Shown here one piece after another: positions 17,160 to 42,350 of a stretch of 64,000 nt of DNA. The stretch lies in contig NC_091123.1 in the NCBI RefSeq assembly GCF_040183065.1, positions 105,924,321 to 105,988,320 of the forward strand. Direction: 5' to 3'. The translations under genes and the position numbers were made by a program. The DNA comes from Periplaneta americana (lineage: Eukaryota > Arthropoda > Insecta > Blattodea > Blattidae). How positions within the stretch are numbered: position 1 is the first letter of the stretch; each line of letters begins with the position of its first letter. The notes under the pieces were generated by a model. It had not been told where the DNA came from, did not search any database, and worked only from the letters and a program-made list of their open reading frames with translations.

Positions 17160-17790
17160 GGTTTTCCTTTCACCATGGGCCCCTATCATAGCCAGCAGGT
17201 CAGCATTTTCATTATATATATAACTTCCACATGGGCATGTATCTAGTATAGTATCACTTTTTATTTATTATTTTTATCATTTTTATTAGGCTTCTTATTT
17301 TTTGGATATCCTTTATTGTTTTGTTGCTGTAATTTATAATGGTTTCTGAGAGGATTGTTATCTTTTATTTGATGCTGTGTTGCTTTGATTGATGTCAGTT
17401 CATCATTATTATGGTTAGCATTTTTATCAAGAGTTAGATACAGTGAGAAGTGTTTATAGTGGGGACCTGCATCTTTTCCATTGTTTATGAGAGATCCATC
17501 TGTGAATATTCTCAACCATTCACTTTCTGGGTACCTTTCATTTATTGTGACCAATACAATAACTTCAATTTCCTCTGGTTTGTCAGTCTTTTTACTTATT
17601 GGATGTATTAGATCAATTCTGTGTACAATATCGATATATTCTACTAAGCTGGTTAAACTTATAATAACTTCATCTGGAATTATGAATAAATATTTTGAAG
17701 CTTATTTAAGTTTTCATACTCCCATATTTACTCGACTTATTTCTGTATTTTTATTTACAAAATTGGAGGAGGGTCTTATAGGCGCAAACT
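17160..17790 (-). pseudogene. LINE ORF2 fragment (end of RT, start of RNase H)
   Basis: The minus strand gives 'TINERYPESEWLRIFTDGSL', the first beta strand of a LINE RNase H domain with its catalytic Asp, followed by a decayed 'HYKHFSLY'. Upstream frames are broken remains of the RT C-terminus. It resembles the LINE families at 22.4-26.2 kb and 58-61 kb and is truncated on both sides. Its right border is at the TSD of the tRNA-bearing element. Confidence 0.6.
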
Positions 17791-17801
17791 TCATAAAATC
17801 A

Positions 17802-18079
17802 TGCAAATCAAGCTTTCAGGTATAACTCCCTGTAAAGCTTGATTTGCATAATACACGTCACTAAAGCCACAATTTAAGTCACACAGATTTAGTGTGCACT
17901 CAACGTTGGTTGCTTGACAGCTGTGAGCCCACTTTGAGGTCTGTGGATATAGAGGGAAAAATTGGATCAGTGTCTGGTAGAGTTCCCGGGTAGCTCAGTT
18001 GGTAGAGCGTTGGTACGTTAAACCAAAGGTCCCGGGTTCGATGCCTGGCCCCGGAACAATTTTTTCCTCGAAATTATTC
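17802..18079 (+). mobile_element. tRNA-bearing retroelement unit, single copy with 5' inversion
   Basis: A unit of about 278 bases homologous to the 284-bp repeats at 40.6-41.5 kb. It is bounded by the direct repeat 'ttcataaaatca' (17790-17801 and 18077-18088), whose 'ttc' may belong to the element. Its 3' end is a tRNA-like segment followed by 'ttttttcctcgaaattattc', the same 3' end as at the 41-kb locus. There is no poly(A). The first 36 bases are an inverted copy of the following kind of sequence, giving perfect 16-base arms at 17801-17816 and 17834-17849. That is a typical 5' inversion of target-primed reverse transcription. Confidence 0.75.
17984..18056 (+). tRNA. tRNA-Asn(GUU)-like segment, probably not a functional tRNA
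   Basis: A cloverleaf can be drawn: acceptor TCCCGGG/CCCCGGA with one mismatch, D stem GCTC/GAGC, anticodon stem TTGGT/ACCAA with GTT in the anticodon position, and T stem CCGGG/CCTGG with one mismatch. Base 33 is C where U is universal, arguing against function. It lies inside the mobile unit. Confidence 0.5.
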
Positions 18080-18499
18080 ATAAAATCACTTAGCTTGGGA
18101 GTGGATTAAAAATACCCTTTATTTTTATGCCACATAATATAGATATACTATATAATTAAACAAAGTTATTACAAAATATTGTGTTTTGACTTCCAAAAAA
18201 TAAGGGGACATTATAGCCGATGAGGACCTATAGCCTAATACAGTATTTCCCTTACTGGCTCTTTTGCAATGTAATGATAGGTGTTGCTTTCACTACGTAT
18301 AACAAAGTATTTTGTGATATTTCAAGTTAATTTTTTTAAGTTGGTATTTACTATTGTTAAAATTTCATCTTTATACTGTATAGTAAATCAGATTTGAAAC
18401 TTATTTTCCACGTCAGTAAGGTAGAATTTTAAATATTTCATTAACAATTGTTGCACAATATGTTATTGTGTATTTTATAATAAAAGAAGGCATATGTTA

Positions 18500-39982: not shown

Positions 39983-40089
39983 GTAAGTATTATGAATTTC
40001 ATTACTTCTTAATGAACTTTAATTAATCATGGTCATTATTATTATTACCACCACTATTATTAGTTTCCTTCAAATGAAACATATACTGG

Positions 40090-40578: not shown

Positions 40579-40613
40579 ATCAGCAATCTTGAATAATTTC
40601 GAGGGAAAAATTG

Positions 40614-40685
40614 TTCCGGGGCTGGGTATCGAACCCGGGACCTTTGGTTAAACGTACCAACGCTCTCCCACTGAGCTACCCGGGA
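40614..40685 (-). tRNA. tRNA-Asn(GUU)-like segment, array unit 1
   Basis: A cloverleaf with acceptor, D, anticodon (GTT) and T stems can be drawn; base 33 is C. Part of the 284-bp mobile unit, probably not a functional tRNA. Confidence 0.5.
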
Positions 40686-40897
40686 ACTCTACCCGACACC
40701 AATCCAATTTTTCCCTCTATATCCACAGACCTCAAAGTGGGCTGACAACTGTCAAGCAACCAACATTGAGTGCACACTAACTCTGTGTGACTTAAATTGT
40801 GGTTTTCTGTTACGTACAGTGACGTGTATTATGCAAATCAAGCTTCCAGGTATAACTCCCTGTAAAGTTAATTTGAATAATTTCGAGGGAAAAATTG

Positions 40898-40969
40898 TTC
40901 CGGGGCCGGGTATCGAACCCGGGACCTTTGGTTAAACATACCAACGCTCTCCCACTGAGCTACCCGGGA
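40898..40969 (-). tRNA. tRNA-Asn(GUU)-like segment, array unit 2
   Basis: As unit 1, but the anticodon loop reads ATGTTTA, giving the canonical U33 before GTT. The T stem CCGGG/CCCGG is perfect. This and unit 3 are the most tRNA-like copies. Base 37 is T, where tRNA-Asn has a purine. Confidence 0.5.
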
Positions 40970-41181
40970 ACTCTACCCGACACCGATCCAATTTTTCCCT
41001 CTATATCCATAGACCTCAAAGTGGGCTGACAACTGTCAAGTAACCAGCATTGAGTGCACACTAACTCTGTGTGACTTAAATTGTGGTTTTCTGTTACGTA
41101 CAGTGACGTGTATTATGCAAATCAAGCTTCCAGGTATAACTCCCTGTAAAGTTAATTTGAATAACTTCGAGGGAAAAATTG

Positions 41182-41253
41182 TTCCGGGGCCGGGTATTGA
41201 ACCCGGGACCTTTGGTTAAACATACCAACGCTCTCCCACTGAGCTACCCGGGA
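41182..41253 (-). tRNA. tRNA-Asn(GUU)-like segment, array unit 3
   Basis: Same anticodon loop as unit 2 (U33 present). One T-loop-side change in the stem region ('cgggtattgaacccg'). It forms a long inverted pair with the plus-strand copy at 41387. Confidence 0.5.
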
Positions 41254-41386
41254 ACTCTACCCGACACCGATCCAATTTAAGTCACACAGAGTTAGTGTGC
41301 ACTCAATGTTGGTTGCTTGACAGTTGTCAGCCCACTTTGAGGTCTGTGGATATAGAGGGAAAAATTGGATCTGTGTCGGGTAGAGT

Positions 41387-41458
41387 TCCCGGGTAGCTCA
41401 GTGGGAGAGCATTGGTACGTTTAACCAAAGGTCCCGGGTTCGATACCCGGCCCCGGAA
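41387..41458 (+). tRNA. tRNA-Asn(GUU)-like segment, inverted unit
   Basis: Plus-strand copy in the inverted part of the array. Acceptor TCCCGGG/CCCCGGA has one mismatch, the T stem is perfect and base 33 is C. Confidence 0.5.
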
Positions 41459-41535
41459 CAATTTTTCCCTCGAAATTATTCAAATTAACTTTACAGGGAG
41501 TTATACCTGGAAGCTTGATTTGCATCAGCAATCTT

Positions 41536-41895
41536 CTTCGCATCTATTACCTTAATGCTAAAGGGGATTATTTCTAGACCCATCTGACCCTATGGCATAT
41601 GTCAGTGTCTGTATATACTTACTTACATGTTTTTACCAAACACATAAAAGTCTGAATCTATGTTTCATTTGAAGGAACTATTTATTACTTTCACCTTCAC
41701 TTCCATCATCTCAGACCCCAACACCACCACTGCCCCTGGCAGGACTTCAAGGACTGAACATTTATGCCCATTCTGTTCTCACTCTTATGAGGTCTGTGAA
41801 TAAATAGAGAGAGATCAAAAAGTCATTGTACAACTTACTGTACCAGTACAGTTACATTGTTACAGTAAACGTCAGAAATGTTCTCGTTGTAGTTT
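41536..41895. other. KAT5 intron 3 sequence
   Basis: Begins with a few residues of the interrupted mariner remnant. The rest shows nothing recognisable. Confidence 0.35.
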
Positions 41896-41899
41896 TAGG

Positions 41900-42350
41900 T
41901 GTGTGCACGCACACACACAAAATTGAATTGTAAATAATGTAAAATATAAATTATAGAAAATGTAAATAATTGTAAAACTAGAGTATCTTAAAAAAAAAAA
42001 ACAATAATTTTAGAATCTGCAATAACATCACAGTCTAACAGTAGATTGTAAACTATAAATGGTAGATAACTGTAATTAATTGTGACCTTAGAACATTTTT
42101 ATAGAGAAAAAAGAGAAAATTGTCGAAACAAAATAATCCAAATCAGATTGTAAATTTCAAATTGTAGAAAATCACTATAAATATAGCATATATTTTGAGA
42201 GAAATAAGCGAATTGTGAAAACAAAATCACCTCATCTTCAAATTAGATTGTAAACTTTGAATTACAGATGAATGTAAATAATTGTAATATTATAAGAGAG
42301 TCTAGTGCATGTAATATTACTTTGTAATGGAACATGAAAAAAACACACAC
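41900..42350 (+). mobile_element. 3' UTR fragment of the CA-tailed R1-group LINE (copy D)
   Basis: Ends with the family's 3'-terminal box (42308-42336, 'catgtaatattactttgtaa'), then A-run and CA repeats. Inside are three diverged repeats of about 100 bases, each starting 'agattgtaaa' (42043, 42145, 42245). No coding sequence remains. Confidence 0.7.

What the first reader, a model, noticed from the sequence alone, without database searches (positions are those of the whole stretch)
40579..41535. A tRNA-carrying unit inserted as a tandem-plus-inverted multimer with one 12-bp TSD
Two and a part 284-bp units stand head to tail and are joined to an inverted partial unit, yet the whole block lies between a single pair of perfect 12-base repeats ('atcagcaatctt') that interrupts a mariner remnant. 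A multimer inserted in one event, no poly(A), a fixed 3' end and a 5' inversion suggest reverse transcription of a concatemeric or circular RNA at a nicked target. Retrozymes and Penelope-like elements behave this way, and animal retrozymes are known as small tandem units. I saw no hammerhead core (CTGANGA), so either another ribozyme or another route to a multimeric template would be needed. This is the best candidate for an undescribed element in the window.
Basis: partly seen in the sequence, partly recalled or inferred. Interest (0 to 1): 0.88.

Follow-up and report, generated by a model that had tools for sequence, protein, structure and literature searches.

The report
tRNA-carrying Penelope-type multimer retroelement
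The block is one insertion of a very abundant cockroach mobile element that carries a tRNA, codes for no protein, and bears insertion scars like those of Penelope-type reverse transcription, which would make its many copies a natural record of how that poorly understood machinery works.

Summary
In detail: 2.43 head-to-tail 284-bp tRNA-bearing units plus an inverted 253-bp piece lie inside one perfect 12-bp TSD. It is not a lone oddity: the genome (apparently Periplaneta americana PAMFEO1) has 20,087 and 13,083 matches to tail patterns of two subfamilies, controls 0. Of 55 blocks parsed, 39 are inverted 5'-to-5'; in 33 of 39 one outer end is site A and the other site B, the two feet of a hairpin whose stem covaries between subfamilies. 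Eight resident Penelope-like element (PLE) insertions, their ends located with hand-set ranges, all pair one tailed with one untailed end, with a 5' inversion and 11-16 bp TSD. This fits the two internal start sites and both-strand priming reported for an Anolis PLE (PMC11167929). Best reading: a non-autonomous element moved by PLE-type machinery, without the hammerhead core seen in nine of nine PLE loci scanned. Array units are largely of one type per locus (4.5% against 45% disagreement). Whether the template is circular, a linear multimer, or arrays partly grew later is unresolved. No partner PLE sharing the hairpin was found.

The parts
40579..40590 (.). left copy of 12-bp target site duplication ATCAGCAATCTT
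   Evidence: (D10)
41524..41535 (.). right copy of the TSD
   Evidence: (D10)
40589..41278 (-). A arm: 2.43 tandem 284-bp units, sense of the tRNA on -, outer end = site A (TTATTCA)
41273..41525 (+). B arm: inverted partial unit, outer end = site B (GATTTGCA), including the 42-nt tail
40829..40880 (-). hairpin (tail) at the first unit junction; A and B are its two feet
41113..41164 (-). hairpin at the second unit junction (first hairpin plus 284 bp)
   Evidence: sequence, unit register
41476..41525 (+). terminal hairpin (tail) that ends at B
40613..40685 (-). tRNA-Asn(GTT)-like gene of unit 1, with T5 (Pol III stop-like) just after its 3' end in sense
40897..40969 (-). tRNA-Asn(GTT)-like gene of unit 2
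41181..41253 (-). tRNA-Asn(GTT)-like gene of the partial unit 3
41387..41459 (+). tRNA-Asn(GTT)-like gene of the inverted arm
17790..17801 (.). left TSD TTCATAAAATCA of the second copy in the window
   Evidence: sequence
17796..18080 (+). second copy: short inverted B arm, one A arm with the tRNA (17984-18057); alignment limits, which overlap the TSD
18077..18088 (.). right TSD of the second copy
   Evidence: sequence

Best explanation
The 284-bp unit is a non-autonomous retroelement carrying a tRNA and moved in trans by Penelope-type (RT plus GIY-YIG) machinery. Shown: insertions sit in one TSD, usually 12-15 bp; in most inverted ones the outer ends are the two feet (A and B) of a conserved hairpin, one of each; the two arms run towards each other 5'-to-5'; the arms of a locus mostly carry one subfamily of unit. 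Inferred: the protein cuts both target strands about 10-14 bp apart, leaving 3' ends that often finish in TG; one 3' end is extended from A and the other from B on hairpin-bearing multimeric or circular RNA; the two cDNAs then join at microhomology, giving the inverted, multi-unit block.
For: A/B ends in 33 of 39 inverted blocks, inverted 39 of 55. TSD of 9 bp or more in 29 of 32 A/B blocks against 1 of 488 mismatched flank pairs. Target read with A on the left starts CA in 12 of 30 and ends TG in 15 of 30 (counted by eye from the list; no null made). In position-ordered lists of exact tails on C1 (100 per subfamily) all 21 neighbouring opposite tails are head-to-head, none tail-to-tail. Hairpin covariation: 14 cells changed on both sides against 4.9 +/- 1.8 shuffled. 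Resident PLEs (RVT_1, telomerase-RT match, GIY-YIG) show tailed/untailed ends, inversion and 11-16 bp TSD in the 8 insertions measured. Published PLE chemistry: two internal RT starts that define the tail, both strands cut and extended (PMC11167929, parts 1-2 of 4 read); inverted pLTR with an optional tail at one end and TSDs of 8-10 bp or none (PMC3846280, passages).
Against: No PLE stretch in hand shares the hairpin: apart from a unit copy lying beside the PLE of L070, the best tail alignments in 37 stretches score 33-37 against a maximum of 35 in 60 shuffles. The PLE-1 tail folded is not a long palindrome. Six of 39 inverted blocks miss the A/B rule by script (L004, L023, L024 at 606, L076, L085, L090); on inspection L085 has its TSD at the B site and L076 has mirror-image flanks, L004 is an unresolved A/A, the rest are unexplained. 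PMC11167929 saw in vitro no difference in start site between the strands and no homology of start site and cut DNA, whereas here junctions often share two bases. Blocks were chosen mainly by similarity to the window units.
Confidence: 0.8

Rival explanations
1. An ordinary tRNA-derived SINE moved by a LINE; inversions come from twin priming and tandem units from template jumping.
For: tRNA head with intact-looking A and B boxes (read by eye), TSDs of LINE-like length. Twin priming by LINE machinery is known (recalled).
Against: Two recurrent 3' ends 42 nt apart, one of each in 33 of 39 inverted insertions; inversion is common (39 of 55); no poly(A) or simple-repeat tail seen at the A and B ends printed; PLEs in the same genome have this anatomy. 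No LINE tail search was made.
Confidence: 0.12
2. Animal-retrozyme type (a special case of the best explanation): the template is a small circular RNA made by self-cleavage and ligation, and multimers come from rolling reverse transcription by a PLE.
For: Unit size and tandem copies fit animal retrozymes, proposed PLE clients (PMC7229834, discussion read). Units of a locus agree at diagnostic sites (4.5% disagreement within, 45% between loci). L013 alternates two unit types twice inside one TSD. Highly folded RNA, z -4.55.
Against: No CTGANGA...GAAA core in U, S1b or S2; only a one-mismatch CTGTGGA...GAAA in U and S1b. No Rfam ribozyme, but Rfam also missed the PLE cores. A homogeneous linear multimer or amplification after insertion would give the same homogeneity.
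Confidence: 0.3
3. The arrays are mostly made after insertion (compatible with the best explanation for the ends): a 1-1.5-unit insertion grows in place by unequal crossing over.
For: L008 and L029 carry alternating unit types with 0 differences among most repeats of a type. Within-locus variants at non-CpG sites are mostly private (205 private, 69 shared).
Against: Ends, inversion and TSD need the insertion mechanism anyway. Many arms are 1.1-2.4 units long, so the template already exceeded one unit.
Confidence: 0.25
4. A DNA transposon or MITE whose hairpin ends are cut and pasted.
For: TG...CA ends and TSDs of rather even length.
Against: Arms have variable lengths and a 5'-5' junction at many places in the unit; A reads away from the hairpin and B through it, so the ends are not terminal inverted repeats.
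Confidence: 0.03

Closest known systems
Penelope-like elements (Penelope/Poseidon group), Anolis Poseidon (PAc) in PMC11167929
   Same: Two RT start sites flanking a stem-loop ('tail'), priming on both strands, tandem template units, short TSD; the 8 resident PLE insertions measured have one tailed and one untailed end
   Different: The unit codes for nothing, carries a tRNA, lacks the hammerhead core found in 9 of 9 resident PLE loci scanned, and its tail is a long near-palindrome
Animal non-LTR retrozymes (PMC7229834)
   Same: About 300-bp non-coding tandem units, many copies, proposed PLE clients
   Different: No hammerhead found; has a tRNA; circular RNA not shown; the words 'target site' do not occur in that paper's main text, so insertion ends cannot be compared
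Blattodean tRNA SINEs (Talua of termites, Sbg1-9 of Blattella; PMC4348803, PMC9191728, passages)
   Same: tRNA-derived head; TSD for Sbg

Membership tests
Penelope-like element (autonomous) | ORF with PLE RT and GIY-YIG endonuclease | tested here: not met
   The unit is 284 bp, far too short for the 807-aa or 609-aa ORFs seen in separate elements L070 and L073
PLE-dependent non-autonomous element | Two alternative 3' ends flanking a stem-loop tail | tested here: met
PLE-dependent non-autonomous element | 5' inverted partial copy inside one short TSD | tested here: met
   39 of 55 inverted; TSD of 9 bp or more in 29 of 32 A/B blocks
PLE-dependent non-autonomous element | Sequence shared with an autonomous partner | tested here: inconclusive
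   No shared tail in the 37 stretches around GIY-YIG hits, but few PLE families were sampled
PLE-dependent non-autonomous element | PLE protein uses the RNA | not testable with these tools
   needs biochemistry
Retrozyme | Hammerhead ribozyme | tested here: not met
   No strict core in U, S1b, S2; none in Rfam scans, which also missed the PLE cores
Retrozyme | Circular RNA | not testable with these tools
   no RNA data on hand
SINE | tRNA-like Pol III promoter head | tested here: met
   ARAGORN and Rfam tRNA 46-57 bits; box sequences read by eye
SINE | poly(A), simple-repeat or LINE-derived 3' tail | tested here: inconclusive
   No poly(A) or simple repeat at the A and B ends printed; no LINE tail search was made

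The most novel reading that the evidence does not exclude
A PLE parasite in which a tRNA gene takes the place of the hammerhead: host tRNA processing or Pol III, rather than a ribozyme, shapes the multimeric or circular template, and each two-sided insertion uses both feet of one hairpin, one per target strand, as two protomers of a PLE dimer would.
Probability: 0.25. Interest if true: 0.87.

Novelty: new variant of a known kind. Interest (0 to 1): 0.72.

Why it matters
PLE retrotransposition is one of the least understood eukaryotic routes. A tiny non-coding client with tens of thousands of copies isolates a candidate minimal RNA signal (the 42-nt hairpin) and gives a statistical map of start sites, target cuts and junctions. 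It suggests a rule, one A end and one B end per two-sided insertion, which sharpens the 'optional tail at one end' described for PLEs (PMC3846280, passages). It also links tRNA SINEs, retrozymes and PLEs, and would mean that part of the SINE-like fraction of the cockroach genome was made by a non-LINE enzyme.

Tried and rejected
Partner search by tail similarity in PLE loci failed (the hits are mainly unit copies next to PLEs). An exact pattern with a guessed start codon in the tail gave one hit in the genome, not informative. Rfam miRNA hits (MIR1031, mir-2513 and others) are below gathering score and overlap the inverted repeats; rejected. The mariner check was dropped. L042's tandem 277-bp repeat looked like a second tRNA unit, but ARAGORN finds no tRNA and I read it as a truncated SINE duplication. 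Period-2 arrays were first read as proof of dimeric circles; L008 and L029 are better explained by later amplification, L013 stays ambiguous. A cluster of arm 5' ends at u9-16 (15 of 85 arms; at most 12 in any 8-nt window in 2,000 uniform simulations) looked like a processing site just 3' of the tRNA; six of the 15 (L012, L079 twice, L085, L087 twice) lie at the palindrome or the tRNA-flanking repeat and the window was chosen after seeing the data, so it is only a hint. The first TSD null (57 of 2,970 at 10 bp or more) was inflated by element-internal repeats and was redone on A/B blocks alone.

Full report
What is there. The reading of the block is right: two 284-bp units and 122 bp of a third stand head to tail, joined to an inverted 253-bp piece, between perfect 12-bp repeats. 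In the sense of the tRNA the layout is: inverted arm, then 2.43 units. The second copy in the window (17796-18080) is a small version of the same thing, with a 12-bp TSD of its own. The window lies in a 3.23-Gb assembly of 91 sequences, which fits Periplaneta americana PAMFEO1 (3.23 Gb, 91 scaffolds; PMC12774602, passages); the identification is inferred.

How common. The first look of the block search had 5,985 candidates. Tail patterns matched 20,087 places (subfamily S1, up to 2 mismatches) and 13,083 places (S2, up to 3 mismatches), with 0 for the same patterns read backwards. In the first 100 exact places on C1 of each list, neighbours under 1.5 kb apart were same-strand 20 (S1) and 24 (S2) times and head-to-head 12 and 9 times, and never tail-to-tail; 32 of the 44 same-strand spacings are 285-292 bp.

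Anatomy. I parsed 55 blocks: those in the similarity-ranked loci L001-L038, those in 20 of about 39 clusters, and the window monomer, with duplicates removed. Thirty-nine are inverted. In 33 of 39 the two outer ends are sense 3' ends of two kinds, one A (TTATTCA) and one B (GATTTGCA), 42 nt apart. The six others: L004 (A/A beside an older copy, unresolved), L076 (B/B, but its flanks are mirror images, so the locus looks duplicated in inverse), L085 (the alignment ran past B; its TSD sits at the B site), L023, L024 at 606, and L090. L021 was split by a filler into two single-ended blocks but has A, B and a 14-bp TSD. Sixteen blocks, those two included, were scored as non-inverted, with one A or B end and a variable 5' end.

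Target. In 32 A/B blocks (window monomer left out), 29 have an exact TSD of 9 bp or more, 24 of them 12-15 bp, against 1 of 488 mismatched flank pairs. Read with A on the left, the maximal TSD begins CA in 12 of 30 and ends TG in 15 of 30 (list, counted by eye, no null), so the nicked 3' ends often finish in TG and can pair with the CA at A and at B. Arms from A and from B have similar lengths (means 366 and 404 bp; A longer in 15 of 32), and 25 of 38 inversion junctions abut or overlap.

The hairpin. A and B are the feet of a near-palindromic hairpin (seven variants fold at -12 to -21 kcal/mol). I aligned 38 of the 79 distinct hairpins found. Three neighbouring stem pairs change on both sides between subfamilies (C-G/U-G/U-A, A-U/U-A, A-U/G-C/G-U): 14 such cells against 4.9 +/- 1.8 in shuffles, and 96.7% of cells paired against 94.8% in shuffles and 58% or less for slid stems. 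The number of pairs with double changes is not above shuffles (3 against 2.6), and relatedness inflates such tests, so this is good but not independent proof.

Resident PLEs. A GIY-YIG scan of the same genome gave 108 matches (150 scored of 7,669 candidates). PLE-1 (L070) has an 807-aa ORF with RVT_1 and a weak telomerase-RT match (E 1.6e-4); Pfam did not report GIY-YIG for that protein at E 0.001, but the six-frame scan did at the same locus, 33.6 bits against a cut-off of 22.6. PLE-2 (L073) has RVT_1 and GIY-YIG. Eight insertions from three families (PLE-1: L052, L066, L069, L070, L072; PLE-2: L073, L075; PLE-3: L063) each have one end with a tail of roughly 40-48 nt and one without, an inverted 5' part, and a TSD of 11-16 bp. 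Nine of nine PLE loci scanned carry a minimal hammerhead-like core (CTGANGA, stem, CGAAA; motif recalled; the pattern is loose and also gives chance hits) that U, S1b and the S2 copy lack. Small PLE hammerheads are described in PMC7761336 (passages).

Literature. PMC11167929 (parts 1-2 of 4 read, and passages) shows that an Anolis PLE cuts and extends both strands and starts reverse transcription at two adjacent internal sites that define the tail; it saw no difference of start site between strands and no homology between start site and cut DNA. PMC3846280 (passages) describes direct plus inverted pLTRs with an optional 31-bp tail, and TSDs of 8-10 bp or none. Searches for a PLE-moved tRNA element or non-autonomous PLE and for cockroach and termite SINEs showed nothing describing this one among the papers listed; only open-licence PMC papers are covered and most were seen as listings only.

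Template. From 150 unit pieces (88% identity or more to the window unit, so older units are left out) in 53 blocks: at 12 diagnostic sites, units of one locus disagree in 70 of 1,565 comparisons (4.5%) and units of different loci in 45% (4,000 sampled pairs); at other sites 2.5% against 3.8%. The sites were picked for differing between loci, and 4.5% is somewhat above 2.5%, so homogeneity is large but not perfect. Non-consensus alleles common to all units of an array are nearly all found in other loci (106 shared, 6 private), whereas those varying inside an array are mostly private (205 private, 69 shared; non-CpG sites). So an array mostly derives from one template species and then mutates. 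L028 looks like a mosaic of two types. This fits a circular monomer, a homogeneous linear multimer, or growth after insertion; L008 and L029 point to the last, L013 (alternating units with and without a 15-bp deletion) is ambiguous. The five Ts just after each tRNA of the block would be expected to stop Pol III (established knowledge), so a plain Pol III transcript is unlikely to be the multimer.

Verdict. Membership as a PLE fails (no room for the ORF), retrozyme fails (no hammerhead found). It works like a PLE client, with confidence 0.8. The enzyme, the partner and the RNA form remain inferred.

Noticed in passing
L070:3630-6053 (-), L073-L075: PLE copies 96-98% alike, one with an uninterrupted 807-aa ORF, so probably recent activity; the genome paper's main text does not contain the word Penelope.
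   Followed up: partly
L063, L064, L069-L075: Minimal hammerhead-like cores in nine of nine PLE loci scanned; Rfam at E 2 did not report them in L063, L070 and L073.
   Followed up: partly
L008:605-2361, L029:956-3257: Arrays with alternating unit types, probably made by amplification of two-unit blocks after insertion.
   Followed up: yes
L013:633-1819: Two unit types, one with a 15-bp deletion, alternate twice inside one 14-bp TSD, the deleted ones with many private changes.
   Followed up: partly
unit positions u9-16: Arms end here more often than expected (15 of 85), 8-16 nt after the tRNA 3' end; six of the 15 are ambiguous.
   Followed up: partly
window 40065-40083 and 41659-41677: Perfect 19-bp inverted ends of the element into which the block inserted.
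   Followed up: no
window 42020-42295: Degenerate direct repeats spaced about 100 and 202 bp (D5-D7).
   Followed up: no
L076: Block with mirror-image flanks, a locus-scale inverted duplication or an assembly fold-back.
   Followed up: partly
L070:6576-6926: Subfamily S2 copy beside a PLE; ARAGORN finds no tRNA in it.
   Followed up: partly
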